Origin: Dunaliella salina
Lineage: Eukaryota; Chlorophyta; Chlorophyceae; Chlamydomonadales; Dunaliellaceae
Length of the DNA stretch: 64,000 nt
Direction: 5' to 3'
Assembly (NCBI GenBank): GCA_002284615.2
Contig: MU069837.1
Coordinates: 170,982-234,981 of the forward strand
Part shown: positions 7,440 through 63,958 of the stretch, piece by piece
How the letters are laid out: every line of letters begins with the position of its first letter
How positions within the stretch are numbered: position 1 is the stretch's first letter
The notes under the pieces: model-generated
The model's database searches: none
What the model was told of the DNA's origin: nothing
The model's input: only the letters and a program-made list of their open reading frames with translations
Made by a program: the position numbers and the translations under genes

Positions 7440-10400
7440 TCAAGATCCTAGTGGCACCACGTCAAAGCCAGCTTCCTCCAGCTCTGCCCTCACAGCCTTG
7501 GCATCCGCAACAACAACAGTCACTTGCTGGCTGGGGTGCAGGTGTGCACGAGCTGCGTTTGCAGGGATGTTCCAGCAATAACAATGTTGGGTTCATACGT
7601 GCTGTGCAAGGGCATTAAGTTCAGCGACTGTACTAAAACTAATGAATGAAAACAAAGAAGATCAGTGTTGGTGCATTCGTCTGAAATTGGAATGCAGCAA
7701 GTATCAGCAGCATTTTGAACACCTACTTTGCAGGTTCAATGCATGTAGGACCTCGTCTTGGTTGCATTTTCTTTCCATTTTAAAGTTTCATCATGTTCAA
7801 ACACACTTCACAGTTCCAGCCCAGCAGTCGAGTGATTTGGCTGTTTGCCTTTCCGTGAAAAGACTCCAATCCTGTCGCACCTGCATTCAAAATGTCTGAA
7901 GGCTGTGCGGCTTCCAAGCCTGCCTTGTACAGCAAGAGTTGGTCCCTCGGGAGGCCCAGCAGGTCATAGATCTATACAGGTCCAAAAACAGGAAGACAGA
8001 GTCAGTCTTGATGGCTACATTTTGCTGTAGAAAGGAGAAGTGGCGGTGGCAAACAGAACACAGTCAAGCAAAAAAGCAGGCACTCCAGCTTTTATAAACT
8101 ATAATTAGCAGGGCAAATATGAAGGAACTTTTCAGGGTGCGCGCAAATGTCACGTTGACTCCTCCATTGCTTCTTGCTTAACTCACCAGTGTGCGCACGA
8201 GCAAGGATCTCTTGGAGGAAAAGTCAAACACAAAAGCGTTCAATCTCTGTTCCTTAGCTTCTGCCAGATCTTGCATTGCCGGAGCCTGGAAGAGCAGGTG
8301 CATACAGAATTAGCATGAGACAAACCATCAATCCCAAGAGCTGCCACTCAGTCGTTGGCTTGCATCCTTGCACAAGGGCTGCGCTGACCTTCCCTGTCGT
8401 TCCAGTACTAGCGCTTACCAAAGAGCAAAAAAATCTCAGAAGCGGCTTCATTCAGCTCATAAGCCTTCTGACCTCATAGCAAATGAGGGGCGGTGCGCCA
8501 CAGCGCAAGGATGATGGCAAAAGGGTTTGTTGTGAACAACTTCTTGGCTACCTTGGACATAAGTGACTCCCCCTCCTACCCCCTCCGGGGCTTCTCCCAA
8601 TGTCGTACTAGTGATCGCTGCTCAGGTAAACATGCATTTGAGGCTTTCTTAATGGTGAACACCCGGGCCCCTTTCTTCTTTTTGCTGATGGGATTAAGGT
8701 GTACGTGCAAGCCTTCCTACTGGCCAAAAAAGTACATACATAATACTTCCCAGGGAGACAACAAGAGCATGAGGGGGGCAACAGGTTTACAGGTTTGCAG
8801 GTTTACATGAAAGGAGCCACTCAGTCAAAACGCATGATTGCTGGGCTATGAATTCAAGGGAGACAACCGGAGCATTAGGGGGGCAACAGACTCAACATCA
8901 CTAACCTGAGAAGCTGATGCCGATAGGACTCTACGAAGGCCTTTCAGCAGTGCGCCTGAATGGCAAGTGGGCAGCGATAGATCAGACCAAGGAGGTTGTG
9001 TAGAGTGTGTATGCTCAAGTGCAGTGCACATTTAAAAGCTCAGCAGTGGTCTTGAGGTTAGGACTGGAGGGCTGCAGGGCTGCCCCGAGGGACCATTTTC
9101 ACTGAAACAACCCTGGAGCTATCAGGGCCCATGACAGTAACAACATGAACACATGCAAACGATTAAAAGGAAGGATGGGCCATAACTTTTGCCGTGGCAT
9201 TCACCTCTGAATCCAGGTTGAGTTACTCGGTTTAAGACAGGGGTGGTTGTACCCACGCTGAAGCATTTGCAAAGATACAATCACTGCACATACGCGCACC
9301 TGGCTGTGATGTTTCAGCTTGTGCAATGAAAAGGCCAGGATGGCCTGGCGGTGACTGCCAACCACCTGACACAGAGTAGGCAAGCCCCTCGCGAGAGCGG
9401 AGCTGTTCGAAAGCCAGCCAGAGTAAAGAAGGGAAGGGTAAATAGGTCAAGGGAAGTAATTTTGGATGAAAAACCTTTTGTTCAAGACCAAATCTGCGTG
9501 CAAAGAAGAGGTTCCGGCAACAGAGCGATTGCACATGGATTACGTTTTACAGAAGCAAAGATATGACCTCCAGTCAGGACTTGCAGCCTGCCTGAAGAAG
9601 CATCCCCCCAAGTCAAAGTGGGGATGGCTCATTTGTGTTTGAAAAACATACGCGTACGGCAGATTTGCCATTTCATTCATCTGTTGAGTTTCTTCAGATT
9701 CTCATTAAGTGCATACAATACGCGCCAAAATCAAATTTTAGCAGCATCTAGTACGCATATGAGTCTGCATGAGCCCTGCAAAAGCAAAGTACTAGTCACG
9801 TTCACATGTTGATGGCACTCTCATAGCCGAACATGACCTATCCCTCACATGATGGCCCAGGGGCAGGAGGAACCGCATGTTTTGCTGCAGCGGGATGTGA
9901 GCAAGAGCATTCTTCATTCATGTGAGCAAGAGCATTCTTCATTTATGAGCAAGAGCATTCTTCATTCATGAGAGCATTCTTCGCTCATGAGAGTATTCTT
10001 CATTCATGTCAACGTGAGCATTCTTCATTCATGAGCAAGAGCCTTCTTCATTCATATGCATACCTGATCAAAGAGCGCTCCTCCAAATGAGCTGAGCATC
10101 CCGCCTGTGGAACGCAGTCAAAGACATGCCGAAAGTGCATCGCTGGAATACTATCAGTGCATTGCCTGTACAATGCATGCAAAGGAATGCTGTAAGCGCA
10201 TCGCCTGTGGGACGCGTTCAAAGGAATGCTGTAAGTGCATCACTGGCCAAATAAGGTCTGGACTGGTGCAGCAAGCCCGTTCACATCTGCTTCCTGCCTG
10301 CTTCAAGTCGCCAGATTTCTCATCATTCACCCAACCAAATCAGGTCGTCCCCATGGCTGGTTGACCTAAGTATGGCCAATTACACTTTCAGGCCCTACTT

Positions 10401-13400
10401 CAACCTCTGTGCATGCCCTGAGTGTACCAAATATGTTTCTATGGCCCAAGCATGGAGTTGGGGGATGTTGCCATATGTGGCTTGGAGGCTTTTTCCACCC
10501 ATTTTGAAAAAAGTGAAATTTTGAACTCGCACCGAATGACCAGCGCTCCGAGACTGAGGCTGTTCTTAGGTCGTCTAATCATGCTGCAATGTCAGATCCT
10601 GCGGGGTGCCTTGGGGGAGCGTGCTGATGCGTTGACCCACCGCGACAGATGTGCATTCCGATGCAGGAAGCAATGTTGCATCGTCATTGCTGCGTCCCCT
10701 CGACCTGAGCACATCCTCTGGTGCTGCCCATCATAACGCGCTTATTGAAACTTAAATGAGGCCAACGCCGTGAGAAGGCGTGTGCTTTCAACTGAATTAT
10801 CGGACACAATTTTCGTGTTTCTCATGTGGGACCTCCCAGCGCTGCGTTCCTGAGCGACTTGAGCACATCATCAGGTGCTGCCCAATAAGAGACGTTCATC
10901 GAAGCTTGAATGAGGGGCGCAGGTTGGCTCATTGTGCTGTCAGTGGGGAACTTGTGTGAATTACCAAATTCAAAAATTTGAATTTTGAATTAACAAATTT
11001 TTGCACCTCACCCCGCCCTCTTTACACCTCCTTTAGAGCTGAAAATCAGGTATCCAACGTACTGCTCAGGTCAAGAATGGTGCAGTGAGTGCTGAGATAT
11101 GCTGAACAGCAGTAAATGACTGCTTTTTGCCTAGGAAAGGGCCATCCAGCCATGGGGACGACCATCACCCAAAAGATGTGACCCTAATTGCACAGCATGA
11201 CCTAGACACTGTGTACCTTGCTTAAAGGCTCTGAAACGTCAGCAATGTGGCAAAGGGGATGCCTCAGAATGGAAGCTCTGCCGACATGAAGAACACTTAT
11301 GCATCAAGGTGTACCTCGCACACAGGCTCGACAATATTGCAATCATGCATAAAGCTCGCATCTCCTTCCGACATCTTGCACCCAGGACCACACCTAAGAG
11401 GTCCAGGGAGGTTGCATCTGGATCGTTGAGGGCCACACCCGGCTCAGCGGCAAACACAGAAGCCTGCGTCGCCCCAGGTCGATCCAGGAGGAACACTTTC
11501 CCTGCTAACTGACTCGCAGGAGCAAGCGGGTCTGCAGGCAGCTGCACCTGCAATTCATGAGTCAGTGAGTGGGCGCACCTGTGATTCATGAGTACGTGAT
11601 AAACAAAACTTGTCATTTATCACTGAGTGAGAAAGAAAAGCTGTGATGATAGAGTGAATAAGAACGTGCGCTTGTGATTCATGAGTGACTGAGTGAGTGA
11701 GTGAGTGAGTGAGTGAGTGAGTGAGTGAGTGAGTGAGTGAGTGAGTGGGTGAATGAGTGAGTGAGGAGGTGCACCTGTGGTTCATGAGTGTGTGAATAAG
11801 CGCATCTGTAATGCATGAGTTATTGAGCAGGTGCATTTGTGATCCATGACTCAGTAAGTGCACCTGTGGTTCGTGAGTGAGCGAGTAGCTGGTCTGTGAC
11901 TCATGAGTTGGGTTAAAACGATTGCACAATTGATATTTTATGCTGAGATCGGCAGAGAATGCAAGAGATACCTCTGCGTCGGCACACTTGGGACCTTCAA
12001 ATCTTTGCCGTTCGGAACACTGCAGCTCGAGTCCAACTCAACAACCATAACAAAGACTGGCTAAAGGAATTGGGAGACGCTACACCAGAAGCCACAGAGT
12101 GGAAGCTGAAGGGAGTCAGCAGCCACCCTGTCCTTAATCCCATGCATGCTGACTTGCCAGGTTTCAGTAACTTGGAACACCTCCCATTTGACGAACAACA
12201 CGTCTCTAATATACCCAAGAAATCCACACCTGAGTATCCAAGATATAGACTCGCTACCAAGCCAGTCCAGTACCATCCTCACTCTCGAACTTGCTGACTG
12301 GAGGACATGGCATACTCGAGTGGCAGCTGCCTTGTCTGGAATGGCAAGCAAGATATTGGGGCAAGCGCATACTGCCCACTTCCTGACAGCAAGAACTTCG
12401 TAGAACCAAACAGAACTGGGATTACTAACACCATTACTCAAGCTGGATTGGCAGCAATTGCTACTGCTACCATCACCAAATATGCAAACATTGCATCAGA
12501 CAGCCTCACCTCTTTCAATCAAATACACAAATAACTTCTTTATCCTGAGAAACACCTGAGGCATATCCAAGGGGACGTCCTTGAAAATGATTTCATCTCT
12601 CGTTAGCAACTCTCATACCACAATTCATTTTTATAAAGTGAAAGCTCGTGCTGGCATTGCTGGTAATGAATGTGCAGATGCTATTGCAAAACATCAGGCA
12701 AAACAAGCAAACAACTGCGTGGCAGATACCAAGATCCCTGGTGCAGGTCCTGGCGGAAATCCATACAGACACATTCATTTGTTAGCCAGGGAAGAAAAAA
12801 GAGTGCATGCCGCTGGTACATCCAAAGTTCCCCCGCCTGCCCCCAAGCTCACCTATCTCCCAAATCTTCAAGATGCTCTCAAATTCCACATGCATACTAA
12901 CACAAACTTGGATGCCAACATCAAAACAGGTTACTACTCTTACTATCAAGACTTATTATCGCATGTAGATTAAAAAATCAGCAATGCCTTTAGAAATATG
13001 CCCTACATTTCTGTACCTTTGAAGCGTAACATCCTGCAGTATCGCACAGTCACCCTCTACAACCAAAAGCATGCAGTCCATTAGTTTAGAGGTCTACTGA
13101 CCCAACATGCCCTCTTTCGGGCTGCCGTCAATTGGACAGCGCACTCCACATGCTCTCGGGCTGTCAGGACGATATCATCTCCAACATGAAAACTGAATGC
13201 CATAACATTGCAGGCAGAATGATTACAAAAGCACTCAGCAAAAACCCTGTGGGAGCAGGCCCGGTCTAAACAGACATAGGAAGCGGTTTCAAACTTGCAC
13301 AACACAAGCTCCAACTCTCTACACATGCCTCAAACAGAAATATACCTCAACTCTCTACACATGCCTCAAACAGAAATATACCTAAGTACTTCTTCCTATG

Positions 13401-14303: not shown

Positions 14304-17221
14304 GTGGAGGCCTTTCCGGCTGCCCTGGCGCCGCTTGCCACCCTCCCAGGACCTCCTGCAGCTCCCCTAGCATTTGCTGGGTGTCAAAATCGCCGATCAC
14401 ACCCAGCACGCTATTGTCGGGGCGCTCCCACCTTCGCAGAAACCTTGCAAGGGGAAACAGCAGGGCCCAGACAGACTTGAAATCAGGAATGATTAATCAA
14501 CCTTTTTCATGTCTTGTACTACTCCATCGTGAAAGAGGATTCAAAAAAATGTTGACAGGCAAACCAATTCGCTACTGCATCTTCTGAGTTCTGGTTCATG
14601 GCCACAAAGTGCTGGCCACAAAGTACTGATGAGGTGCCTATTGCTGCAATCCTGATCTTTCCTCACTCCAAATTTTCCATACATCCCCTTTCACGCATTT
14701 GCAATTGCAATTGAGATTGACTCACTTGCGAGCATCGTCGGTTGTGATGGAAGCTATGGTCTCCGGATTTGGTTGGCGTGCATAAATGCTATCTTTTCCA
14801 TACATCAGCTGCCGGAGTTTCCTGCATGTGCACGAAGCCCACACATGATTCGATGCAGCAAGCGCACACTTCATGTTAAGTTGCATCCATAAACAGTATC
14901 TCCCAGATTAGTTGATATGTACTGGTTAAAGGCAGCTTTATGGGGTATACTTTCAAGACACACATGTTGGAGAACTCACTTGTTTGCCGCACTCACCTGA
15001 AGGCTTCTGAGAAGCACATATGCATCGTTATCCTGATGCTGCTGCAACGTATCCACAACCTTACCTAAAGGCTTGGACATCTGCATCGTCATCCTGGTGC
15101 TCCAGCGCATCCATGACCTGAGTTTTGTAGAATTCCAGCCGCGGAGCAGGCAGCGCTGGCGACCTGCGCAAGGTTTACAAGGTTTACAATAGGATATGAA
15201 GCCTTCAGCCATTCAGTCTGGCTGCTCAGCTTATGAAATCAGAAGTCTGCAGGATACTGAAGTAGGACATGAAAGGCTCTGCCATCACACACAAGTTGAC
15301 TCCAGATAGCACGACCTGCACAAGCAAAACAAATATTAAGTCTATGCTGGCCATAGGCTGCTGTGCATGAAGGAAAGGTCAAGGGCCCTAACTAGCAAGC
15401 TAGCATGGGCCTCACCAAGGAGCCCTCAACCCCACACGAGAGGAGCACAAGCAAAAGAGAGTGTGTGGGACAAATAGCAACCTGATGCTGGCTGGCTCAG
15501 ATCGTGCCAGAGGTGCTTTTCTGGCGCTGGCATGCACTTCCACAATACCACTTCCCTGGGTACAGCCAGCACTCAGATAGACCTGCCTTTTAACACAGCT
15601 CCCATCCAAATACAGGAGTGCAGACAGGCAAGTCTGCAAAAACAGAGGACATCAAACTTAATCCTTTTGGGTTAAGCAAGGGGAACCTTGCAAGTTTTTA
15701 TGACAATGACTTAGGATCCAGCCTGACAGCGTAACCAAGATGCGGTTTCATGCCTATCTACAAGCTGGGCCTTTAAACGTGCAGCTGAGATAACGTAGGC
15801 CCTAAGGCTCAAGCTTACCTAAGTACGGTGTCAAATTGGCGAAGAATTGTATGTACATTCTCTGAGGGGCAAGAGAAGCTCATCACAAAGGCTTGTTGCC
15901 CAGCATTGGTCTCAATGGCAGCCGCAACCTCCTCCAAATCTGCATCCAATGTCGGCCCGGGGAACTGTACGCTCCCTCCACCCCTTTGCAGCGCGAGGGA
16001 CAGTGTCGCCAATCCCACCTATACAGCATGAGGTTGAGATTGCATGCTCTTTGCACCATATTTGCAGCTGCGCTTTGGTGGGCATCAATATGACATGCAC
16101 TTCCAGCATTCAACCAATACTGAGCATGAACCTCTGTCACTTGGGGACAAAGGCAGGGCAGGCTATTACCTAAATTTGCCCTGACTGCAGGGCTCTGTAA
16201 GGATCGGAGCTGTGGTCATGCACTTGCCATGCCAGTGTGCCGGAGTTTGTCCTGAGTGCACGGCTTTGGAGGGATTTGCACTGTTATCATGCGCTTGCCT
16301 TGCTCAGTGTGCCAAAGTTTGGCCTGACTGCATGGCTTTGCGAGGATTCCTGTGGTCGTGTGCTTACTGTGTCGGTGTGCCAGAAAAGGTGGGGACTGAA
16401 TCACAGAACAGCACTTGTCCATTTCTCCTGGATCGAACACCCGGACATCTCCCAAGTTGGCTGGGGGCGCTTAGACCTGTGCTTGTATGGATTGATGCAA
16501 GCACACTGACGGTGCACCTCTATCCCGTGCAAGCCCTGCAATTGAGTGCACAAGCATTCAAAACTAGAGCGTCGTTGGCCCCACCTTATCAGGAGGGCTG
16601 GCATACTGGCCGCCCCTCATCAGCAAGCTACCACGGATGATGGGCACCTCATGATCCTCCAAGAGCACGAGTCGCAGCCCATTGGGCAGCGTAGCCTGGT
16701 CAGGAAAGTGGCAGCATAGTAACTTGGGCCTGTGCTGTCTTGTACAAGACCTCCAGAACAAAAATCAAGCGGATATTGTGGCGGAGATTTTTGCACGCGG
16801 GACAACAGAGGCACAGTCCAAGGGACTCACAGCAGGCCTAATGACCTGCCTCGGTATAATCTGGAAGTTGAACGGGCGGAAGTGGAGGGAAAGATTCCGG
16901 GATTTTGGGAAGAGCGTCCGCCTCTGCATCGCTGGGCAGCAGCATGCTTGCACGTGTGATGGATTGGGGACTGCCCGCTTGAGCCAGCAAGGGCGGTGCT
17001 GAAGGAACATCATTTGCTTGCGTCGAGTGAGCGGTCGAGGCATTTGCTTCTGTTCCTGATGGGTTCATGAAGAGAGGTGGTACACTGCTTGCCAATGCAA
17101 CATCTGGAGGCAAGAGGAGGAGGGAAGCTGTGGCCACAGCAGTGATGGCTGGCGGCGCAAAGCTGGAGGACTTGGCACCTGCAGAACAATGAGCAAACAA
17201 AGCGCATTTGCACATGATCAA
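7440..17221 (-). CDS. M16B peptidase-like protein, probably plastid/lumen-targeted, HxxEH absent
   Basis: I read 13 coding exons on the minus strand: 17221-16850, 16695-16585, 16018-15819, 15163-15065, 14821-14726, 14443-14302, 11547-11394, 10104-10064, 9402-9300, 8955-8906, 8285-8187, 7971-7881 and 7552-7440. All phases agree and give about 556 residues. Family landmarks in order are LPNGLRLVLLEDHEVP (~127), GSLLMRGGQYASPPDKVG, KTQVMDALEHQDDD, YGKDSIYARQPNPET, VLGVIGDFD, LLDRPGATQASV, SSFGGALFDQ, LRSREGLAYSVSGGW (~406), YDLLGLP and a stop after VVPLGS. This is the two-domain M16B fold of bacterial, cyanobacterial and plastid insulinase-type proteins. The zinc HxxEH position reads T-L-S-L-A-L, so it resembles the non-catalytic partner subunit. 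The N-terminus has a hydrophobic run ending VALA-SS, like a thylakoid-lumen signal. The start is uncertain: ATG 17221, or a further 5' exon spliced at 17178. Confidence 0.85.
8785..8860 (+). repeat. Short dispersed repeat family D
   Basis: A tandem TTTACAGG/TTTGCAGG tract is followed by CAGTCAAAACGCATGATTG and CTGGGCTA. The same order recurs at about 25700-25790, 29895-29990 and 49130-49220, and in shorter form at 15165-15230, 19135-19165 and 47475-47505. CAGTCA...TGATTG/TGACTG can pair. It lies in an intron of the M16-like gene. Confidence 0.55.
9896..10063 (-). repeat. Minisatellite directly after a splice donor (M16-like gene, exon 8)
   Basis: Units of about 20-25 bp (gagcaagagcattcttcatt...) are repeated six to seven times. 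In gene orientation the array begins right after the donor of exon 10104-10064, and unit starts (GCTCTTGCTCAT) resemble the exon end (GCTCTTTGATCA). Spacing and sequence are too irregular for a CRISPR array. Confidence 0.8.
10105..10255 (-). repeat. Tandem copies of the acceptor region of M16-like exon 8
   Basis: Upstream (in gene orientation) of exon 10104-10064, three degenerate units of about 45-50 bp recur. Each holds a CCACAG/GC-type or TACAG/GC-type 3' splice site like the real TTCCACAG|GC. See the findings. Confidence 0.75.
10530..10740 (+). repeat. Dispersed repeat family E, copy 1
   Basis: This matches 50650-50900. Shared blocks are GACCAGCGCTCC, CTCTTAGGTCGT, ATCATGCTGC, ATGTCAGAT and GGGGGAGCGTGCTG. 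Non-coding; it lies in an intron of the M16-like gene. A related tail is at 10840-10920. Confidence 0.65.
11548..11910 (-). repeat. Minisatellite built on the acceptor of M16-like exon 7, with (GTGA)n core
   Basis: In gene orientation the real 3' splice site (ACTCATGAATTGCAG|GTGCAG) is preceded by a chain of degenerate units. Each carries CTCATGAAYCACAGGTGC-like sequence. The centre (about 11683-11760) has become a pure tetranucleotide GTGA run. Confidence 0.75.
11950..13990 (+). mobile_element. LINE relic with RNase H and restriction-like endonuclease (family L-RLE), 3' part
   Basis: This is a decayed non-LTR retrotransposon inserted in the M16-like intron, in the opposite orientation to the host gene. 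12310-12530 reads as the start of an RNase H domain (YSSGSCLVWNGKQDIGASAY). 12580-12710 carries its KARAGIAGNECADAIAKHQA block. 13295-13771 carries a restriction-like endonuclease core: RSDAILTIP, then VHLIEIKFCEDTE (the E-x-K motif), then HPVLLGVGGTIYTKHTL. Frames are broken by stops between these parts. The 3' tail at 13880-13980 (gagccaatgtgtctccttttcct) recurs at 24760 and, reversed, near 32440. No RT domain was seen in this copy. Confidence 0.8.
14232..14301. repeat. (CA)n microsatellite abutting a splice donor
   Basis: On the minus strand this is a GT run that begins immediately after the CAG ending M16-like exon 14443-14302. The donor GT is therefore the first repeat unit. Confidence 0.9.
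14976..15163 (-). repeat. Duplicated 3' end and donor of M16-like exon 4
   Basis: Exon 15163-15065 encodes ...QVMDALEHQDDDADVQAF then gtaagg. About 70 nt downstream a second copy (about 15060-14998) reads VVDTLQQHQDNDAYVLLRSLQ followed by gtgagt. Reading through the first donor gives a stop codon, so the second copy is a decoy or an alternative exon end. Confidence 0.75.
16170..16395. repeat. Tandem repeat, ~75 bp units, about three copies
   Basis: Units carry the shared blocks TTTG.CCTGACTGCA.GGCT, GTGGTCATGCRCTTGCC and AGTGTGCC. They lie in the intron between M16-like exons 2 and 3. Confidence 0.7.
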
Positions 17222-17538: not shown

Positions 17539-24685
<7,147 letters not shown>

Positions 24686-24719
24686 GGCACACAGAGAAAG
24701 TACATTCAGACATCGCATT

Positions 24720-24840
24720 TGTTGTTGTTCATGTGGTGAAGGCTACTCATGGCTCTTTTGTGCCAATGTGTCTCCTTTTCCTCGATTGAAGTAGTGAGAG
24801 ATTTATCCTCTTCCTATGTAGTTTTTACTCTGTTGGTCAT
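24720..24840 (+). mobile_element. Truncated 3' end of an L-RLE LINE
   Basis: The GTGCCAATGTGTCTCCTTTT...TGAAGTAG...CCTATGTAG tail matches the 3' tail of the LINE at 11950-13990. It sits just past the PF16-like stop codon and may form part of that gene's 3' UTR. Confidence 0.6.
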
Positions 24841-26060
24841 GTTGTTGGTGGTGGTGCAAGATGCTTGCTGGCACAGCCAAGCTGAATGGCGTTTGAAAAC
24901 CAGGAACTAGCAAGTTACTTCAGCTTCAGACATTAGGGCTATAAAGGAATGGTTTAGGCAAAGAAGAGCACAGGGGGAGGGAGGAGACAGGTTGTTTCCG
25001 GGGTGATGTTGACTTTTTTAAATGCATGCAAGCAAAGCGAAGAAGGCGTTTTTGATGTTGGCAGGTCCAAATCGTCTGCCAATGGAATGTGCTTCCAAAG
25101 AATTTGATTCAATTTTCGGATTCATGGCTTTGCATCCATTGTACGATGCTTCTTTCACATCTTTAGCCAAGGTGTTTCTCGTTTCTTTTTTGATGCAGAA
25201 TTCACTGCCGATGCCTACTAGCAGGGGCAAGGGGTACCAGGCAGGGTTGAAATAGCCGAAGGTAGTTAGGTGTGAACTAGGAAGAACCTAAGGGAGTTAG
25301 GGTGTTGCGTTTTCCCAGAATGGCCATGTATCAAGGGGAAGAGTCTGGGCCTACTTAGGTAAGGCCTATGTGGAAGGCTTCCGTAGTGGTTCATGCATCC
25401 AATTGACATGCTCATTTGTTGGGTAGTGATTCGTGTTGTCAAGCCGGTATGTCTTACACTGCACGATCTGCGCATGACGCAATGCATTTCCCTTCTTCTT
25501 TAGTGATTAAGGGAGGATTTCCCCTGACTATGTATTCTTTCTTCTTTTTTTCCTTTGGGTTTCATGCAGGAAAGCTTGCTTTACAATGACATTCATAATT
25601 ACAAGGAAGGCTTCTGGTCAAACCAACTGACTGCCCCCCTGTTCGGAAGAGGAGAGGGGCTCATGAAGTCACTAGTATCCATGCTTACCATGCCGTCCAA
25701 AATGTGACAACTTTTACAAAATATTACATGGTTTACAGTAAAGAAGCCACTAGTCAAAACGCATGACTGCTGGGCTACAAATTAACACTGCAAATTGAGC
25801 AACAGAAAGTAAGTTTGGTGCTTGTCTTGCTGCACAAGACATGGTGGGTACAACAGCACAGCAGAAAGAAAAGGTAATTGAATGTTCCAGGACCAACCGA
25901 CTGCATACGATAAGATGGGCAACACACAAGACTTCGGAAAAGGTAAGGTTACGTCGCTATATCCGCCTACGAGGGCAGCTGAGCAGAAACACTGGGGCCT
26001 GTAACCAGATCTGGCAAAAGGAAAAAGGGCTCGACTCACAAAACTTTGGACTTTGAAAAA
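24841..26060. other. Intergenic, no gene seen
   Basis: Contains a family D short repeat at about 25700-25790, a second partial one near 25600-25640, and a weak L-RLE 3'-tail match near 25500-25545. No supported coding frame. Confidence 0.45.
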
Positions 26061-26061
26061 G

Positions 26062-26938: not shown

Positions 26939-27099
26939 GCGTGCTTTTTAGGTAACTCATGTGCCGCACTTGCAGGTCACTCGCAAACTCCTTGCCCTCT
27001 TTAATGTACTCAGTTCCTCACACCTGCCCTGCATACAGTCCAGCCAGAACCACATACGTCTTGCCAAGCCACAGAGAGACATATGGCCTATTTGCCAGA

Positions 27100-27520
27100 A
27101 AGTGCTCACGAACAAATTGACAGAAAAGTCAGAGAAGATGCACACTGACTGCCATCATGATGCTGCGCAAATGAGTGTGAAGGAGGCCAGAAATATATTA
27201 GGTGGACAAGTGAAATTGTGTGAAGCAACGCGCAATGAGAGGGTGAATTACATCAAGCACACCTTGCACTTGGGCAAGCCTTGGTTTGAAAAGGGGGGTT
27301 TCATGGCTATCAGTCGCGCGTTTTGACTGAAGGCCTTTTTCCCCTCTGTAACCCCTGTAAAATGTGTGGTTTCATGAAGAAATGTTACGACCATGATGGC
27401 ACACCCATTCCTAAAGTGACTTTGCACGTCGTCTTAATTGATGTGGCTGGCACCATTTACAATGTTTATACAATCAAACCTCTTATGAATCTGGGTCTTA
27501 TAAGTAATTGCTAAAGAATA
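27100..27520 (+). mobile_element. Strongly decayed L-RLE LINE tail
   Basis: 27405-27512 reads KVTLHVVLIDVAGTIYNVYT, matching HPVLLGVGGTIYTKHT of the copies at 13700 and 32700. Upstream frames are broken. Confidence 0.6.
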
Positions 27521-28650: not shown

Positions 28651-28652
28651 GA

Positions 28653-37321: not shown

Positions 37322-40300
37322 CTAGCCCCCAATAGTAATCATGGGTCTATTCTGCGTGGCCGCAATCTCAAACATGCCTGCGTGCTTGGCCTTTTTGCGA
37401 CGCACGGCTGCACCGATGATGAGGCGGAGGTCCTCGTCTGTGGCACCCCCGCGCATTGCGTCGCGCAAGCTCACCTCGCTTGCACCAAACAGGCACACCT
37501 TCAGGTTGCCATCAGCCATGAGGCGGAGCCTGTGGACAGGACAGGACATCCATTTGTTCAACTACTGGAACAGAGCAGAATCTTAATTTACTCCTATCAA
37601 AATCTTGATTTACATCTACATAAAGAATCGTCTACATTACTTTTCTCAACAAGCAACAGAGGGGAGGTAAAGGAGTCGGGCCTACAACAAATGGCACCAA
37701 AGGGTGTGTCTCTGAGAGCACTTCGGTTCCTCAGAGCCTGCAGCAACAGCTGTAGGCTGTGTAATGTCGAGGTCCCACACAGCTCACCTCCTCTTTCCCC
37801 ACAAAGGCGCAAGGCATGTGCTCAATTTGCGTGCAATAATGCGCAAGAGAAAAGCATTTCTATAGGTTTCTGGGCAGAAAAGCTCCAAGGGTATAGAGTC
37901 CCTCGACTTCCAACTGAAAGCACGATGGTTTCACCCTAATCTGAAGGACAAGGGATTTCTACTCTCCGACCTCTGTTGTACTAAACTCGAATTGAATCTT
38001 TCCGTTTGGAGACTTTGGCTATCTGCAAGTGTGATCAACTTGAAATGCTCATCCGGTGAAGGCATGTTCTGTGATGATCCCTGTGTAGAAATGAACACAT
38101 CTGATCGAAAGCGTCGAGTCTGGAGAACCTGAATGTGGTGAGCCGTTTTACTAACTGCTAACGACCTTCGGTCGCCTGAAAAGTTTGATCCTGGAGCCCT
38201 CTTTTCATGCAGGTTCCCCCATGGGACATACAACAGCCTCACAGCAAGGCAGAGTGTCTTGTGCAGAAGTGCACAAGGAATATTTTTTTTGCTAAATGGC
38301 ATTCCGCACCTGAGAGTGCCCAACAGAGTAAAAATGAACTTTACAGTCGTACCTGTTGCACTCCCCACAAAAATGTGAGGTCATGGATGTCACAAAGGAG
38401 ATGATGCCCGCATGCCCTGGTACTCGGAAATTCTTGGCCACTTCTCCATTGGGGTCCGCCAACCTCTCCAACAGCTGATTGTGCTCAGAGCAGCTGCTGC
38501 TGCTGCTGCTACTACTGCTTTGGTGGCTATTACTGGCAGCAGTTTCAACAGGCGAAAGCTCTTGCTGCTGTTGTTGCTGCTGCTGTTGTCGCTGGTCTAG
38601 CTGGTGCTGCTGCTGCAGCGCCTCCCGCACGCGCGCCATCATCTCCCGGTAAGGAACCATTTTCTTGTCAGACCACACATTGCCATCAAATGGCATGTAC
38701 TCGATAAAGCGCACGTTGATCGGGTGGTCCCTTGTCAGAGCCACAAAGTCGTTGAGCTCATCATCATTTACACCGCGCATCACTACCACATTGAGCTGCA
38801 CAAGATCCGAGAGCCAGCAAAGACATGGCATGCACATAAAGAGTCGTTGAGCTCATCATTCACACTACACAGCATTACCTCATTGATCTGCAATAGATCT
38901 GAGCACCAAAGCAAAGATGTGCATGTATGCACAAAATCGTTGAGGTCATCATCTGCTACCACATTGAACTTTACAAGATCTGAGCACCAGCAAAGGCATG
39001 TATGTATTCACACCTTACACTTGTGCACAATTGTCTTTACAGAAGTGGATGGAGGCAAGCATATTCAGGTTTGAGCTGCTGCAGTGCCTCGTACAATAAG
39101 CTAGCTGTTGTGTCTAAAGCACTCGTCATTTTTTGTTTTGATGTCCATCCTCCTCAACTAACACAAAAGCCAAGCATGACCGACCACCAAGACAGGTGAG
39201 CATGCACGCTTCCTGAAATGAACCCCACACTTTCTTGGACACAATTTCTGATAGAAAAGAATTGAGTTTTTGAGCATCCTACATTCATCAACACCTCTTT
39301 GCCATCTTTATTACTAATCAATCAGGGATGACTTGGAGGCCAAATAAGAGGTCCTTGCCAGCAGCACTGAGAACTGCACAATGCCTTCTCCTTTGATTGC
39401 GTTGATACTTTGAATGTTTGGATGAAAGGGGCAGGAAAGTCGAGAGCTTTCCCAGGCCCTTTCACATCCATCCTCATTTTGACAGCATGGCATATGCAAT
39501 ACAGCGAACATTTAAACAAACTCATTTGCCACGTCTGCGACGTCGAACTGCTGCACAATGCACCTCTAGTGCCAACTTAGACGGTCTGTGCCATTTCACT
39601 CTAGTGTCCCCTCACCTTGACAGGATTGTAGCCCATGCTCAGCGCCTTGTCGATTGATCGCATGACCTTGTCGTGGCCAGGCCGCCTAGACATCACCTCA
39701 AAACGCTCTGGCCGCAGCGTGTCCAGGGAGATGTTGATTGCCGACAGGCCTGCTCACGTATGCACAGTGGCCATGGACGGTATCAGGATTCATCATTCCT
39801 TGAGAAAAAGCTCCCTCCAAGGCCAGCCAAAAAGCATCTGCCTAACTGCTGAGCACTGGGTGAGAACTCTTTAAGGACGCCTACTTTATATCCACGATTC
39901 TATCTATGCTTGTGCTCAGCAGCAGTCTAGAGCGCCTACGACCTATTACCATTGTCACCCCACCACGCACCAGCTTCTTGAAGGGCTGGCAGGTTGCGGG
40001 AAAGGGTGATGCCATTGGTGGTGATGGCGATTGTTTCTAACCCCGGCAGCACCTTCAGCTGGTGGCAGAGGTCCACGAGGTCGGGGCGCAGCGTGGGCTC
40101 ACCCCCTGTGAGCCGCACTTTGTTAATGCCCGCTTCCACAAATAGCCTGGTCTGTGGGACGGGGAAATGGCGACCATGGATGCCACCAATTGGAATAAAG
40201 TGATGACATAACATGATGGTGCGTGTGCTTGCCTGTGCTCAATTTGGTTGATAACACGTGTGCACGCTACAAGCAGAAGAGAAAAAAACTGGCATTTCTA

Positions 40301-41972: not shown

Positions 41973-42004
<32 letters not shown>

Positions 42005-42217: not shown

Positions 42218-42283
<66 letters not shown>

Positions 42284-42372
42284 TTTCATAAAATAGAAAA
42301 AGGNNNNNNNNNNNNNNNNNNNNNNNNNNNNNNNNNNNNNNNNNNNNNNNNNNNNNNNNNNNNNNNNNNNNN

Positions 42373-42410
<38 letters not shown>

Positions 42411-57200: not shown

Positions 57201-57910
57201 ATTACAAGGACAACGATTCACTCGGGGAGCTTGTCGCTGCCCTGCTGCATCCCACACTTTCTGTCTAAACCTTCCTGCCCCTGTGCAGGTGGGTGCTCCA
57301 ATCTGAAGAGGCTGATGACCCTGAGGTACAACACATGATAGAGGGCCTCAAAGCCAAGGGTGAGCATTTCAACCCTGGGATGGGAGATGTGCAAAATTCC
57401 TTGTGCATGCTACATTTGACATGAAAGAAGTCAAGAAGTCCAGCTCAGAAAAGAGCAGGCGCTTAAGCTGAGAGCATCTGTTGGTTGACCCAAGAGCACA
57501 CTACCATAGAGAGAATATATCATTACGCAATAATATATTTTTGGGGCTTCACGTAGAAATCGCACTCGTAAAAAGATTGTTAACTGAGTCAGTGCGTATG
57601 AGTGCATATGGGAAAAATACTTGTTTGCAATGAGTGGGCGGCAGCAGCAGCAGCAGCAGCTTCTTGTCCTTTTCAAGGCAAGTGGCAGCTTGGTCCTGTG
57701 AGTGTCTCTGTGAGTGTCCCTGTTTATGTGGCATGCATGGACAGCCCTGTGTGCTTGTGCATGCATGCTTTTGAGTATATTCGTGTGCATATTTTTGCAC
57801 CATGCATGAGCATTCACTTGTGCATGTGCATGAATCCTATGCGAGCTTTTGTGTGCAAGCATGTGTCTGCGTGTGTGCTGATGCTCCAGCGCGCAGAGGG
57901 GCTTAAGAGG

Positions 57911-57979
<69 letters not shown>

Positions 57980-60900
57980 TGTGTGTGTGTATGCTAGTTG
58001 ATTTGTGTGGGCTGAGGCTTTTTGCAGAGGGGCCTATCTGAGGCCCAACACCAGTTTTTTTGCATGCTCCCTGCATAGGCCTCCCCCGACTGGCAGTTTC
58101 AAATTTGAGTCCCTTCTGCCTCTGCAGCACCTGCAGGTTGGATGAAACATGCCTGATCAGCCGCGGCGTGAACCCTAGTTTTTACCATCAAATCTCCATA
58201 CCAGGCCATCAACTGCGCCAAATTGGGTGATTCTTTATGACTTGGAGTCCTCGTAAGGAAAAAGTATCATTGCAAAAGAAATGGAGTGAAAAGACCTAGT
58301 GGTTGGTGCTCTGTGGAAAATGTAGCCATTTTCCCATAAAAGCACTGAACTAGGGTTTTCATGCACCATTGCGATTTAGCCCTGTCTATCTAAACACAAA
58401 GGGCAACTTGCACCTGAGCACATGCATGGGTAGCTTGTGAAGCCAACTACCTGTTGAGGCCAGATTCGTCCCAATCAGAAGGAAGTGGCTGTGAGTTACT
58501 GCACCTTAAACACAGAAAAGGAGCATATTTGGGCACTTGCTCAGTTAGCCCAGCCCTTGGGCTTTTTGGGCACTGTGTAACCTTGCGAATACAAAAATAG
58601 CAACTGCTGTCGAAGGTGCGTAAATGGTGCATATGTAAAGAAACTTGTCGTTTTTAAAAAGGATGTGTAATGATTCCTATTTGACATTTTACCAAGGAAA
58701 AGTTAACCAAGCGAGATTGAAGCCGCAATCTGCCGCTGGACTTGCTTATACTTGAATTATTTGCAAAAGCACATGCTTGACAGGCGCACCTTAAAAGCAG
58801 CATTAATCTGCATGCACCGAGCTTGACAGTGGGAATTTGTTTTTTTGTGTACCCAAATTTCTAACCAGAAATTTGTGATGTCCCAGAATCAACCGAATCG
58901 GTTTGGCGCACTTTGGATGGAAATTCCGCGCCTGCGCCTCGACCGTTCCGGATAAAAACTGGAGGGAATTGATATTCAGGGTTCCTGGACTTTCCTTGCT
59001 GAGTTCCGTGGCGGGAGGTGCCGGACAGATTCTGTGGCTGTCCGTGCGCATGGAGGACGGACAAGGGTGCAGTGAGGTCCTCTTCGCTTGAGCTCCTCTT
59101 CAAACAGCATGGATTCATGTTGGTCCATGCCTATCCCCCAGAAGATGATTTGGTGACCAACGAGGTGCATGGAGAATGGGGTCGAGAATTGCCGCAATCA
59201 CACACAACGGGCACCGACTAGTTACAAATTGTTCGAAATATATCATGGTGTTTCTTTTATGGCGGATGGTCGAAGAGGACGGGGTGCAGTGGGTCGTATG
59301 GAGGAGATGGGGTCCCCCCCCCCAAAAAAACCTGAAAGCGAAATTTGGGCCGGCGGAGCCCTTCTATCCAAATGGTCCAGACAAAAGCTTCATCTTGCAG
59401 CATAACCCAATGCTGTCTTTTGCATCAAAATAGAGTGTCTGCATGTACTCCGTAATGCCGCAGGAGTCCATGTGGAGCAGGCAATGGCTCCAGCCAAGCA
59501 GCGAGGGCCCCGCATGGTGGTAAGAATAACTCCAGCTTTTGATTCTCTGCATGACAGGAAGCACAGTTTTTCAGCTTCTGAACTGTTGTAGGTTTTGCTG
59601 CCACTCACGCTGCATCCGTTCCCAATGGCAATTCAGCACTTTTTTCATGCTGACACAAGTTTTGCAACGCACAGAGCGGGAGCCAACCAGCCCTTGCAGT
59701 TTGTGCAGTATCTTGTAGTGTGCTGGAGAGTGTGCCTGTCTCAAACAAACGTTGTCAGCAAAGAGGTCCATCCCCACCATGCGCTGGATACGTATGCCGC
59801 CTGTGTCTGTCTCAAACACACATTTTCAGGTCAGCGAAGAGGTCCATCCCCACCAAGTACTGGAAATGTATGCCGCCAGTGCGGGCATGTCTGAGGCGGG
59901 CCTGGCTGAGGCACATGCAGCTCTGCAGGTGAGGGACATAACTAGCTGTGTATATGCGAGTGAGGGGCACATGCAGCTCAACCAGTTGTGCAAGTGCTGG
60001 ATACATATGCCGCCAGTGTGGGCATGTCTGAGGCAGGCCTAGCTGAGGCACATGCAGCTCTGCAGGTGAGGGACGCAAGTAGCAACGTGTACAGCCCAGC
60101 AGTCATGCGTTTTTGACTGAGTGTCAGCCGCCACAACCTATGCCAAGTTCGGGTGATATACTGCCAGACACCTGCAAACCCACTTCTGAGTGGGGGAAGT
60201 TGCTTCTTTAAATCAGAGAACTTGTCTGGCTTGTTGGTGGCTTCTGGATGTGGCTCAGGTTTAGCTCTGTGCATCAGAAACCGGCATTTCTTCCATCTGG
60301 GCCCACCATTCAGTGTTTTGAGTTGACATATGGTTTTCTATTAATATTTACATAATTGAGGAGCAAGAGGTGTGCCAGATACCTGCATTGCTCGGTCACC
60401 CCTTGTAATGGCCATTTTCTGAGGAATCCTGCTCAGGCCCAAACTGCATCAGCGAGTATTTTGGGAGCCTGCTGGTAATATTGCAAGTAATTTTGGGTTA
60501 CCCTGAGGGCCCCTGGTGCTTGTCGGATTTTCATCGCACGGACAGGTGCACGAAAGCAGGAAGGCCTGGCCAGGCCCCGATAGGCCACCTCCGCACCCGC
60601 TGTTTGTTCTGGCCGATGCTTGGGGCTGTCATCATCAACATTGACACCACGGGCTGTGAAAATGGGCGCCTGGGAGGAGCTGCTGGGCTCCGCAAAGTTG
60701 CTGGGGCTAAAAACTGCCAATTTTTTGCTTGTGGGCACACATGCGAGGAATTCATTGTTGTTTTGATGATATTCTAAACAAGTTGTGACGATTGGATTCT
60801 GGATTTGCTGGAGCCCATTCTTCATTTCAGGGGCCTTTCGCGCAATTCTGGTTGTCACAACTTTTTCTTTCACATATCAAATGAAAATCTGTGCCCTCGC

Positions 60901-62388
60901 ATCTGCAGCTGTTCGCAAAAATTTGTTTTTTGAAATCAAACACTTGACCCCATCCCAACACTCCGCTGAAGTATCAACATTTCATTAAATATTAATAGAA
61001 AGCCGTTCCCTGTCGTCATCACTCCTCTCGACTGGCTTTGGAGCACCCCCAGGACAGCCCCCTGCCAGCTCGGATCAGGAGGCCACCAGTGCACTCAGGG
61101 ACCATCCTGGAGTCCACCTACAGGCTTGGGGGTGCAGCTGGAGGGTTAGGGCACACAGGGGTTAAGTTTTGCTGGCTGAGCGTGCAAACATGGAGGCCTA
61201 GCGTGCAGCAGGGTTTACTAAACGGGGCCAGCTCAGCGCTGAAAAATTGCTTTCTTTACTAGCTTTCAGGAGGTGTTCTCAGAATGGGCAGAGGTGGCCT
61301 GGCTGGCAAAAGGCAGGATATCACACAGGGTTGTGGCACCTGACTGAGTGGCTCTTTCCTTGTAAACCTTGTAAACCTTATAGCAACGTGCAGCCCTGCA
61401 GGTGGGGAATGCAATTAGTTTTGTACGTGCAGCTGAGGGGCACATGCAGCTGAGTACTGTAAGCACGGGGCATACAAGCTTTGCAGGTGGGGGAAAAAGT
61501 AGCCACGTTTGCGCAAAGGAGGGGCACGCAGCTTTGCAGGGATGTCATGGGCATGGTAGCTCCATTGCATCTGGGTACATGCAGCTCTACTAGTTGTGGG
61601 CACATGCAGCTCTACTAGACAAGGACACAAGCGGCTCTCCAGGATAGGGTCGCATGCAGCTCTGCTAGTTCTGGCAGGTGCAGCTCTGCTAGTTCTGGCA
61701 GGTGCAGCTCTGCTAGTTCTGGCAGGTGCAGCTCTGCTAGCAAAGGTCACGCGCAGCTCACTGAAGGTGAGGGGTCTGGCATGGGCACACGCGGCTCTCT
61801 GCAGGAGAAGGACTTGGTTCTTTGGAGGGACAGTAAACCCGAAATCGGCTGCAAATAGCAGGCTGGCCTAGTTCTGCACCCTGCATGACACACCCAGTAT
61901 GCAAACAGGGAGCGCAGCTGTCTGGTCATTGGTATGAAACACCCACAATCCTTGGCATTAAAAACCCACAATCCTGGAAGGCTCCTGACATGGAAGATGC
62001 AAGCCTTGTGCCATGTGCATGCTCGATTGAAGTTTGCATTGAATTCTGCGTTGTGTGCATGCAGCGGGCTCTTGAGGACACCCCCCAGCACAACTTTCCA
62101 CATGTGGACTTGGAGCTGTTAGAGTGTGAAATTGAGGGCTACGGACCGTTTAAAGAGCGCCAGGTGAGAGGGTTAAAGCGCAGGTCAAGGCTTCAAGCCT
62201 ACACGAAAGGCCTCAAAGTCTGAGGCACACAGGGGAGTGGGAAGCCATAGTCCCCACATGAGCGCCAAGGCTGAGGCCTTGCCTTCTTGCCCTCCGTGCT
62301 GGGGTTCTGTTTCATATGCTTGCAGGCTTGCTGCATGGTCATCGTTTCCATTGTGGTGCGTGAGATGTCATGCCCTGTCTGTTGCAAG

Positions 62389-62474: not shown

Positions 62475-63958
62475 TATGCATAATTGCATGACATGAGATG
62501 AAAATTGGAGCAAACACACAATCTTGTGCCTGATGGTCGCACGCTATTCCTGCTTCCCAGTTCTAGGCTTTCAATTGTTGCGCGAGAATATTCCCGATTT
62601 GTGTTGCTTCCAATGCGCGCAGCGTTGGGTTGGATTGTTGGGGCAAGAGGGGGGGCAGGGTACCACAACTGATGACATAAATGTCATCAGAAGCATGTGT
62701 ACTGGATGGAACCTTTGGGCTTTCTAAGTGTCTGCCCTTGCTTATGCTGCCTGACTTTTCTGGTAGTGACGCCTTGGTTGTGATGGCATCTGTTCTAGTG
62801 CCATGTAGGGGTTTAATGGACAGCAAGGGATGATTTCTGTGTGCAGCACCCCTCCGTCGCCTTCTGCTTTTCCTGCTTTCGTACAAGGAGGACCTCAGTG
62901 GGCTTTCAGTGCATGCCTACCGTTATGATGTGCAGGTGTACCCATTACAAGATCGAGGCCTGCGGGTCATCACTGGGGACAACTTGGATGACAGTGGCTC
63001 AAGTAGCAATGGTGAGGGTGTACCCGTTACGGGATCGAGGCCCATGGTGAATCAAGGTATACCCATTATGGGGTGGGTGCTTGCGGGTCCTCACTGGGGA
63101 CAACCTGAATGGCATTGGCTCAAGTAGCAATGGTGAGTCAGAGTGTACCCATTCCGGGATTGAGGGCCATAATGAATCAAGTTATACCCAATACGGGATC
63201 CAGGCTTGCGTGTGATCACTGGGAACAACCTGGATGACAGTGGCTCAAGTAGCAATAGTGAGTCAGAGTATACCCACTACGGGATCAAGGCCCATGGTGA
63301 ATCAAGGTATACCTATTATGGGGTGGATGCTTGCGGGTCCTCACTGGAGACAACCCGAATGGCATTGGCTCAAGTAGCAATGGTGTATCGACCAGAGCAT
63401 CTGTGAACAAGCGATGGTGCAAATGGATGGCATAGACTCAAGTCGCAATCGTGAGTCAAGTGTGATACCTCTGACTCAAATAGCAATGGTGATTGGAAGT
63501 GTAGCATCTGGGTACAGAGAAGCTTGCAAATGCATTGTGGATCAGCATTACAAACACATGATTCAAACAGTTATGTAGAACAGTCGAACACAGTGTGGAA
63601 TAGCACGGCAAACTCATTGTGTGACAGCTCACAGGTTTGTTGCAAACAGCTTTTTGCAGCTCTATTACAGAAAAGGATGAAGTGCAGACATTTGGGGGGG
63701 GGGGGAACGAGTCCCTTCCTGGTCCTGGCCAGAGCGAGAACAATGTCCTGCGTCCCAACTCATGAAAATCAATCTGTCCACAGAGGCCAACGCGTCCGAT
63801 TACTGGTCTCTTGTTGTAGGGATGCAGCGCTTAAGCCTGGACTTTTCTGTTCATTTGACAATGCTTGACTCATTGCATGTTGCGCAGGTGCTGGCAAGAG
63901 CAGTTTAGTCACCGCGCCTCTTTGGGCATTGACCGGGGACATGCTCACTCGGACAGAG
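43906..63958 (+). CDS. SbcD (Mre11)-like phosphoesterase fused to SbcC (Rad50)-like ATPase, organelle-targeted; 3' end beyond window
   Basis: I read 17 exons whose phases all agree: 43906-44170, 44304-44605, 44969-45026, 47531-47643, 48106-48114, 49013-49125, 49569-49680, 52262-52409, 53777-53853, 54134-54247, 56739-56794, 57289-57359, 59464-59519, 59830-59928, 62065-62163, 62936-63011 and 63888-63958 (613 residues so far). The N-terminus (MRFGMQLLHTTFRRNLG...) looks like an organellar presequence. Calcineurin-like phosphoesterase motifs follow: SDLHVD (~175), GDWW (~209), GNHDQ (~245), FAHADV (~319) and TGHYH (~351), then ITYIGSPYQ and LLVLDADQGW as in SbcD/Mre11. After PGDVVK and a helical linker comes LLECEIEGYGPF, the start of an SbcC/Rad50-type ATPase, then SSNGAGKSSLVTAPLWALTG, a Walker A P-loop at ~587-594. 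Known SbcCD and Mre11-Rad50 are separate subunits that trim DNA ends. The first exon and exon 2 boundaries are the least certain. The coiled coil and Walker B should lie to the right. Confidence 0.85.
45610..46260 (+). repeat. Dispersed repeat family A, near-complete copy with hairpin end
   Basis: Colinear with 49940-50630 and 52790-53420. The arm near 46110-46132 (agtggccccactttgcactttt) is complementary to about 46167-46190. It lies in intron 3 of the SbcD-SbcC-like gene. Confidence 0.8.
46660..47400 (+). repeat. Minisatellites with (GTT)n and (CCTG)n cores
   Basis: There are four 19-bp units (tggctggtctctttatgtc) at 46817-46890. About seven units of 50-60 bp around GCAATGTGGTG.AGTGACAACATGCCTGCC lie at 46930-47350. 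(GTT)n is at about 47098-47150 and (CCTG)n at about 47349-47400. All are in intron 3 of the SbcD-SbcC-like gene. Confidence 0.88.
48106..48114 (+). other. Nine-nucleotide microexon encoding His-Asp-Gln
   Basis: CTCTCTTCAG precedes and GTTAGT follows the nine bases CATGATCAG. Phase 0 on both sides joins exon 47531-47643 (ending ...LMLVGN) to exon 49013-49125 (starting VDLGGEMHALKP). This restores GNHDQ, the central metal-binding motif of calcineurin-like phosphoesterases. Without it the protein would lack the catalytic His and Asp. Confidence 0.8.
48180..48263. repeat. (GT)n microsatellite
   Basis: Pure GT run 66 bp downstream of the microexon donor. Confidence 0.96.
48625..48800 (+). repeat. 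Dispersed repeat family F, copy 2
   Basis: Similar to 20450-20660. It lies in the intron between the microexon and exon 49013-49125. Adjacent open frames at 48399-48594 and 48754-48936 look exon-like but are bypassed by the phase-consistent chain. Confidence 0.5.
49940..50630 (+). repeat. Dispersed repeat family A, near-complete copy with hairpin end
   Basis: Same block order as 45610-46260. It ends in a hairpin: 50444-50466 (caggcacgtgtgcccaaattgg) against 50550-50575. It lies in an intron of the SbcD-SbcC-like gene. Confidence 0.8.
50650..50900 (+). repeat. Dispersed repeat family E, copy 2
   Basis: Matches 10530-10740 in order and spacing. A related fragment continues at 51040-51120. Confidence 0.65.
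51630..51990 (+). repeat. Tandem repeat, ~115-bp units, about three copies
   Basis: Units share GCATGAGA, TCTCGGCTTTGCAAGGCAC, AGTCATGAAC.CATCATCATC and AAAACGAGTGCATG. In an intron of the SbcD-SbcC-like gene. Confidence 0.82.
52790..53420 (+). repeat. Dispersed repeat family A, near-complete copy
   Basis: Same block order as 45610-46260, including GGACCATTTTTCACCCCCAA and ACTAGGGTTCACGCCGCGG. In an intron of the SbcD-SbcC-like gene. Confidence 0.8.
54560..54760 (+). repeat. Tandem duplication, ~95-bp units
   Basis: Two copies of GGGTGCAGTACG..ATGATGGT.TCA...ATTGAAGCA.A.GGCATGAGTC lie in intron. Confidence 0.75.
54800..56600. other. Intronic stretch of the SbcD-SbcC-like gene; no exon placed
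   Basis: Open frames at 55342-55752 and 55469-55873 are rich in Leu, Ala and Ser, with CTG-rich low complexity. They have no consistent splice sites or family match. An extra exon here cannot be excluded. Confidence 0.35.
57913..57990. repeat. (GT)n microsatellite
   Basis: GT run with one interruption, in intron 12 of the SbcD-SbcC-like gene. Confidence 0.95.
58040..58340 (-). repeat. Dispersed repeat family A, partial inverted copy
   Basis: The reverse complement carries GGTCTTTTCACTCCATTTC, ATCACCCAATTTGG and ACTAGGGTTCACGCCGCGG. Confidence 0.75.
59745..60080 (+). repeat. Tandem copies of SbcD-SbcC-like exon 14
   Basis: The real exon is 59830-59928. A 5'-part copy lies before it (about 59757-59820, encoding SKEVHPHHALDTYAA). 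A 3'-part copy lies after it (about 59990-60066, encoding LDTYAASVGMSEAGLAEAH, though a TAG interrupts GLAEA in one reading) and ends in CTGCAG|gtgagg. A shorter donor fragment is at about 59960-59985. Confidence 0.85.
61385..61775 (+). repeat. Minisatellite of GCACATGCAGCTCTGC-type units
   Basis: About ten units of 25-40 bp resemble the end of exon 59830-59928 (GCACATGCAGCTCTGCAG|gtgagg). It includes four near-identical 24-bp units at about 61652-61745. It lies in the same intron as that exon's donor, 1.5 kb downstream. Confidence 0.75.
62392..62473. repeat. (GT)n microsatellite
   Basis: Pure GT run in the intron between exons 62065-62163 and 62936-63011. Confidence 0.96.
62941..63500 (+). 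repeat. Tandem copies of SbcD-SbcC-like exon 16 end with donor
   Basis: After exon 62936-63011, copies of its second half plus donor recur. Copies ending near 63132, 63254 and 63379 keep frame and encode LRVLTGDNLNGIGSSSN, LRVITGNNLDDSGSSSN and LRVLTGDNPNGIGSSSN. Two short fragments end near 63450 and 63487. Half-units (cgggatcgaggcccatggtg) alternate with them; the period is about 120-125 bp. Confidence 0.9.

What the first reader, a model, noticed from the sequence alone, without database searches (positions are those of the whole stretch)
7440..63958. Splice junctions repeatedly seed intronic tandem repeats in all four resolved genes
At least seven arrays contain copies of the adjacent exon-intron junction: MoaA exon 5 acceptor (38740-39005), PF16-like exon 6 (19208-19591) and exon 9 acceptor (22370-22564), M16-like exon 4 donor (14976-15163), exon 7 acceptor (11548-11910) and exon 8 acceptor (10105-10255), and SbcD-SbcC-like exons 14 and 16. 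The copies decay away from the real exon. This suggests a recurrent local duplication process that enlarges introns and creates decoy splice sites. I know of no described class covering it.
Basis: partly seen in the sequence, partly recalled or inferred. Interest (0 to 1): 0.9.

Follow-up and report, generated by a model that had tools for sequence, protein, structure and literature searches.

The report
Splice-site copies inside algal introns
In this alga (a Dunaliella), short stretches of DNA are copied side by side all over the sampled genes, and about one in five sampled exon edges has been copied into its intron, leaving look-alike splice sites; such copies were described before in lancelets, and no clear preference for splice sites was found.

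Summary
The copies are real. Of nine junction-versus-array comparisons, eight beat all of 1000 shuffles; the FAP194 exon 9 acceptor does not. Over six genes of one Dunaliella genome, 26 of 122 mapped splice junctions have 51 intronic copies. All 24 acceptor copies lie upstream and all 27 donor copies downstream of the true site; 42 of 51 keep AG or GT.

Copies cover introns evenly; 22 of 122 junctions are covered against 20.3 expected under rotation (P 0.37). A second null gives a weak excess (21 of 77 clusters against 14.9, P 0.051; 0.006-0.19 with other settings), so enrichment up to about 1.6-fold is not excluded.

[quoted passage not shown] Best reading: a pervasive, junction-blind short tandem duplication process, filtered by splicing and selection. 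What may be new is the frequency and the host.

The parts
7440..17178 (-). plastid-type M16 peptidase-like gene, 13 mapped exons (its first exon was not mapped)
   Evidence: tblastn with P0001, a Dunaliella tertiolecta protein; splice sites checked
14992..15100 (-). M16 exon 4 (15065-15163): donor end 15060-15100 copied at 14992-15039
   Evidence: 35/48 identical, above all 1000 shuffles; below the 30-bit limit of the counts, so not among the 26 junctions
11538..11909 (-). M16 exon 7 (11394-11547) acceptor with upstream copies, 4 of which hold the junction; 3 keep AG
10096..10246 (-). M16 exon 8 (10064-10104) acceptor with an upstream copy at 10198-10246 that keeps AG
   Evidence: 41/51 identical
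19190..19774 (+). FAP194-like gene, exon 19592-19774 with three upstream copies of its acceptor side
   Evidence: identity of the gene
22370..22564 (+). claimed FAP194 exon 9 acceptor array: not confirmed
   Evidence: P 0.148 against shuffles
38742..39012 (-). MoaA-like gene, exon 5 acceptor side (true junction near 38798, read) with upstream copies
   Evidence: 68/89 identical, above all shuffles; pairs; the MoaA name is read from the translation, no database call
59731..60083 (+). SbcD-SbcC-like gene, exon 59830-59928 with a partial copy on both sides: 59731-59799 (acceptor side, AG lost) and 60007-60083 (donor side, GT kept)
   Evidence: exon assigned by eye against P0121, without a tblastn match of its own
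62934..63385 (+). SbcD-SbcC-like gene, exon 62936-63011 with its donor inside an array of about 3.6 copies of a 121-125 bp unit, the first copy being the exon itself
   Evidence: exon identified with P0121

Best explanation
Genes of this Dunaliella accumulate short direct tandem duplications, most with units of 60-175 bp, wherever breaks or replication errors happen. The process does not see splice junctions. Because junctions are dense and copies cover 9-31% of the non-exon sequence of the sampled genes, about one junction in five ends up inside a duplicated unit. All copies found lie on the intron side of the true site, where splicing can still join the true sites, so the protein is unchanged and the copy drifts. 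Shown: presence, frequency, one-sided layout, flat placement, a range of identities. Inferred: the mutational mechanism (fill-in repair of staggered breaks, or slippage and unequal exchange for later copy-number growth), the removal by selection of copies that would lengthen exons, and the idea that exon definition lets the cell ignore decoys.
For: 77 tandem-duplication clusters in six genes (88 kb), 0 in one shuffle of each gene. Junction coverage as by chance: 22 of 122 against 20.3 expected; with BLAST and TRF arrays together 22 of 122 against 22.0. Coverage of the intron 1-20 bp from acceptors 0.215 and from donors 0.195, against 0.21-0.24 at 101-400 bp (0.21-0.28 in between). 51 of 51 copies lie on the intron side of the true junction and 42 of 51 keep AG or GT. 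Offsets that are multiples of 3: 18 of 51, 17 expected (counted by hand), so no sign that the copies serve as coding variants. Identity of the best pair per cluster runs from 67.5 to 100%, median 82.8, and the period median is 100 bp; one junction-spanning unit is 98% identical, so at least one event is recent. Small tandem duplications are a known outcome of break repair in mammalian cells (PMC8355091, passages).
Against: Placing each cluster at random on its own gives a weak excess of junction hits: 21 of 77 against 14.9 (P 0.051), 25 against 16.2 and 24 against 15.7 when 3 or 5 bp each side are asked (P 0.007, 0.006), 11 of 31 against 5.5 for pairs of at least 85% identity (P 0.007); 18 against 13.5 (P 0.10) and 14 against 11.1 (P 0.19) with 12 and 20 bp. 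The rotation null at 85% identity gives 13 of 122 against 7.8 (P 0.048) with 3 bp margins and 11 against 6.8 (P 0.079) with 8. The Poisson range of the main ratio is 0.68-1.64. Exon parts of copies are somewhat better preserved (0.866 against 0.810 over 36 of 51 copies), so a longer-lasting trace over exons could cause such an excess, but this was not modelled. Exons lengthened by an old in-frame copy were not searched for. No RNA data.
Confidence: 0.75

Rival explanations
1. Splice junctions seed duplications: the AG|GT motif at both exon ends, or R-loops and co-transcriptional splicing complexes, promote slippage or breaks there.
For: Excess of junction-holding clusters in one null (21 of 77 against 14.9; 11 of 31 against 5.5 at 85% identity or more; 24 against 15.7 with 5 bp margins, P 0.006). 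The SbcDC exon 16 unit begins at an AGGT (read).
Against: Rotation null: 22 of 122 against 20.3. Flat coverage around junctions. Tandem arrays found by TRF cover fewer junctions than expected: units of 7-50 bp 0 of 122 against 5.3, all units from 7 bp 5 against 11.5; but TRF ends arrays early (its array 10145-10241 stops 41 bp short of the M16 exon 8 junction that the alignment reaches), so this understates.
Confidence: 0.12
2. The copies are kept because they do something, such as regulated alternative exons or splicing brakes.
For: 42 of 51 copies keep AG or GT and several are near-consensus, for example CAG|gtgagt.
Against: No frame preference of the offsets (18 of 51 divisible by 3, hand count); exon parts carry substitutions. 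Retention (0.82) is close to what exon-part identity alone predicts (0.866 squared, 0.75), and alignments that reach the junction favour retained sites.
Confidence: 0.06
3. Mobile introns (Introners) or dispersed repeats that carry splice sites make the arrays.
For: Some introns hold dispersed repeats: window 10343-10400 has 35 further matches in the genome.
Against: In the one array searched against the whole genome, bases 1-193 of the query (window 10145-10337) matched only themselves (that search skips very common words); the confirmed arrays are copies of the neighbouring exon edge.
Confidence: 0.03
4. Assembly artefacts.
For: The assembly has gaps or withheld stretches (114 kb of N in 264 kb of C402), and three of the six gene stretches contain runs of N (2238, 85 and 183 bases).
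Against: Most copies differ by 10% or more (identity quartiles of the best pair per cluster 77.5-89.1), which repeated assembly of one sequence does not make.
Confidence: 0.03

Closest known systems
'Mirages' of amphioxus genes (Adh3, globins BflGb6 and BflGb9, troponin C, PGBD5)
   Same: Minisatellite-like tandem duplications that span an intron-exon boundary, on acceptor or donor side, units 10-72 bp (Adh3) to 150-160 bp (globins), many copies with AG/GT (PMC3087553 and PMC3902484, passages).
   Different: A green alga instead of a lancelet; 26 of 122 junctions in six genes instead of reports from single genes; no haplotype or RT-PCR data here.
[quoted passage not shown] potato RdRp case)
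   Same: Tandem duplication that includes exon sequence and splice signals (PMC3443670, passages; PMC4974935, abstract).
   Different: No new intron was shown here; the copies sit inside existing introns.
Small tandem duplications from break repair (CST, Pol alpha-primase fill-in)
   Same: Short direct duplications, frequent in genomes (PMC8355091, passages).
   Different: A mechanism tested in mouse and human cells; nothing here tests it in Dunaliella, and about half of the units here are longer than the under-100 bp class named there (period median 100).

Membership tests
amphioxus-type 'mirage' | tandem copies span an intron-exon boundary | tested here: met
   26 of 122 junctions, 51 copies
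amphioxus-type 'mirage' | both 5' and 3' boundaries affected | tested here: met
   24 acceptor and 27 donor copies
amphioxus-type 'mirage' | many but not all copies keep AG/GT | tested here: met
   42 of 51; one of the nine others (DHC_C266 acceptor 5792) reads AG, where the gap was placed differently
amphioxus-type 'mirage' | copy number differs between haplotypes | not testable with these tools
   one assembly only
amphioxus-type 'mirage' | regular splicing is undisturbed | not testable with these tools
   no RNA data for this genome; the D. tertiolecta protein P0001 matches the true M16 exons, which is indirect
   22 of 122 against 20.3, P 0.37; weak excess in another null, 21 of 77 against 14.9, P 0.051, and P 0.006-0.19 with other settings
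[quoted passage not shown]
   intron ages were not compared with other species
Introners | similar introns at many unrelated loci (definition as in PMC9860276, passages) | tested here: not met
   one array only (window 10145-10337): no second match in the genome

The most novel reading that the evidence does not exclude
Dunaliella introns are built to a large part by continuing short tandem duplication, so that roughly a fifth of all splice junctions genome-wide carry silent, often near-consensus decoy copies, always on the intron side. That would make the genome a natural test bed for how a spliceosome tells the true site from an almost identical one nearby. What is new would be the genome-wide scale and its occurrence in a green alga, not the class.
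Probability: 0.35. Interest if true: 0.6.

Novelty: new member of a known kind. Interest (0 to 1): 0.4.

Why it matters
It takes intron-exon boundary duplications, known from reports on single lancelet genes, to a common feature of six sampled genes of a green alga, and it corrects the cause: chance inclusion in a pervasive duplication process, not seeding by splice sites. It shows one way introns lengthen, and it offers dozens of natural pairs of true site and near-identical decoy for testing splice-site choice. It also warns gene predictors, because decoys can look like exons.

Tried and rejected
Junction seeding: rejected as the main cause by the rotation test and the flat coverage, with the weak contrary results told above. 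The two nulls differ: one search places each cluster on its own, rotates all junctions of a gene together and so keeps clumping on both sides. I regard the second as the fairer one, but both are reported.

Exon constraint as a detection bias: exon part identity 0.866 against intron part 0.810 over the 36 of 51 copies with at least 15 aligned intron bases. The direction is right but the difference is smaller than a simple one-branch model predicts, so it is offered only as a possible reason for the weak excess.

Limits. The self-BLAST found no unit below 54 bp, probably because hits near the main diagonal are dropped; TRF was added for these, but it ends arrays early. M16 exon 4 donor falls below the 30-bit limit and is not in the counts. 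FAP194 and SbcDC are only partly mapped: exon ends flagged unknown were left out of the junction lists, and MoaA was left out of the counts altogether. One SbcDC exon (57290-57361) rests on its open frame and acceptor alone, another (59830-59928) was matched to P0121 by eye. In DHC_C266 five exon ends were corrected by hand and two set to unknown after the automatic step, and the donor at 19364 was set from the sequence; HSP90 and DHC_C2 ends were set by hand. Whether duplications are denser in genes than between them was looked at only roughly. No control genome of another eukaryote was available. A codon model was used to find coding stretches on C402, not for the counts.

Full report
What and where. 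The window is G000:C402:170982-234981 of a 285 Mb eukaryote assembly. Its M16 peptidase gene has as best relative a Dunaliella tertiolecta protein, 78% identical over a strung-together query; 9 of 13 tblastn matches are at 85-97%, the other four being the poorly conserved first part or matches that run over exon ends. The organism is therefore taken to be a Dunaliella; D. salina is my guess and was not tested.

The observation. I mapped exons with relatives: M16 with P0001, the ARM-repeat gene with PDB FAP194, the SbcD-SbcC-like gene with P0121 from Chlamydomonas eustigma. Each claimed array was aligned to its junction and compared with 1000 Markov shuffles. Eight of nine comparisons beat every shuffle; FAP194 exon 9 does not, P 0.148. 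The claim that copies decay away from the exon is not general: of 11 junctions with more than one copy, some fall, some rise and some are flat in exon-part identity.

Independent genes. I added part of a second dynein gene on C2 (4 exons) and an HSP90 gene, closest to endoplasmin, on C402 (9 exons). These were the first other genes that I mapped; none was dropped. Junction copies are there too. In DHC_C266 the exon at 19187-19364 has one partial copy upstream with its acceptor and one downstream with its donor. In DHC_C2 a 228 bp unit, 98% identical, is repeated 2.3 times over an exon start, so at least one event is recent.

How common. In the six genes (88 kb, 122 mapped junctions), self-BLAST finds 77 clusters of tandem duplication at 30 bits or more within 700 bp; one shuffle of each gene gives none. 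26 of 122 junctions have at least one copy that holds the junction with 3 bp or more on each side, 51 copies in all. All 24 acceptor copies lie upstream and all 27 donor copies downstream of the true site. 42 of 51 keep AG or GT. Offsets divisible by three are 18 of 51, as expected by chance (hand count).

Is it seeding? Three views. (a) Coverage of introns by copies is flat: 0.215 in the 20 bp next to acceptors, 0.195 next to donors, 0.21-0.28 at 21-100 bp, 0.21-0.24 at 101-400 bp; exon edges 0.14-0.22. (b) Rotating the junctions of each gene against its duplications: 22 of 122 covered, 20.3 expected, P 0.37; 26 against 22.5 with 3 bp margins; 14 against 15.3 with 20 bp; in the three independent genes 17 of 71 against 15.5, in the three window genes 5 of 51 against 4.8; for pairs of at least 85% identity 11 against 6.8 (P 0.079; 13 against 7.8, P 0.048, with 3 bp). 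With TRF arrays added, 22 against 22.0; TRF arrays alone 5 against 10.7 and units of 7-50 bp 0 against 4.6, both with 8 bp margins. (c) Placing each cluster at random on its own: 21 of 77 against 14.9, P 0.051; other margins, score and identity cut-offs give P between 0.006 and 0.19. View (c) is the best case for seeding and is weak; the range of the main ratio in (b) is 0.68-1.64.

Why the copies stay. After a tandem duplication over a donor, using the first donor leaves the exon unchanged; over an acceptor, using the last one does. The 51 of 51 one-sided layout is what selection on the protein would leave, though the true exon was itself defined by relatives and exons lengthened by an old copy were not searched for. 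That cells ignore near-perfect decoys fits exon definition, with exons of about 40-330 bp between longer introns; this is inference.

What is known. Lancelet genes contain such structures under the name 'mirages' (PMC3087553, passages read; PMC3902484, one passage). They vary between haplotypes there, and RT-PCR suggests normal splicing. The original Adh paper (PMC117041) and Gao and Lynch (PMC2791625) are not held. Tandem duplication is also an accepted route to new introns (PMC3443670, passages; PMC4974935, abstract). Full-text searches for such structures in green algae: (five terms, no paper; Dunaliella and exon definition, no paper), on Dunaliella genomes and introns (15 of 18 and 9 of 9 listed; no title or abstract start names such structures, none was opened). 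Searches looked for the class in general. Most subscription papers are not in that library, so absence from print is not shown.

Verdict. The anatomy is largely right, the class is known, the cause proposed is not supported. What deserves attention is the frequency, about one junction in five of this sample, in a green alga.

Noticed in passing
window 10343-10400: A short dispersed repeat inside an M16 intron: 35 further matches (82-95% identical) across the genome, a lower bound.
   Followed up: no
window 3241-3539, 45594-46083, 49931-50451, 52805-53314, 58147-58308: A family of dispersed repeats of up to about 500 bp, 69-85% identical, one copy inverted; probably remains of a mobile element.
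   Followed up: no
window 29180-29678 and 31095-31564: Long inverted repeat, about 500 bp, 81% identical, about 1.4 kb apart.
   Followed up: no
six genes against window 1-7400, 24700-37200 and 40300-44400: Tandem duplications seem denser in the six genes (0.42-1.42 per kb) than in two stretches without a mapped gene (0.14 and 0.08 per kb), but a third such stretch has 0.50; contig average 0.35, nine other loci 0.51. Unsettled.
   Followed up: partly
window 59913-59978 and 61386-61451: A further diverged copy of the SbcDC exon 59830-59928 donor region lies about 1.5 kb downstream (77% identical), next to 24 bp minisatellites that look similar at 61570-61740.
   Followed up: no
window 16850 (M16 exon 2 donor): Probable GC-AG intron: the exon ends GAG|gcaggt and joins in frame to the next exon.
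   Followed up: no
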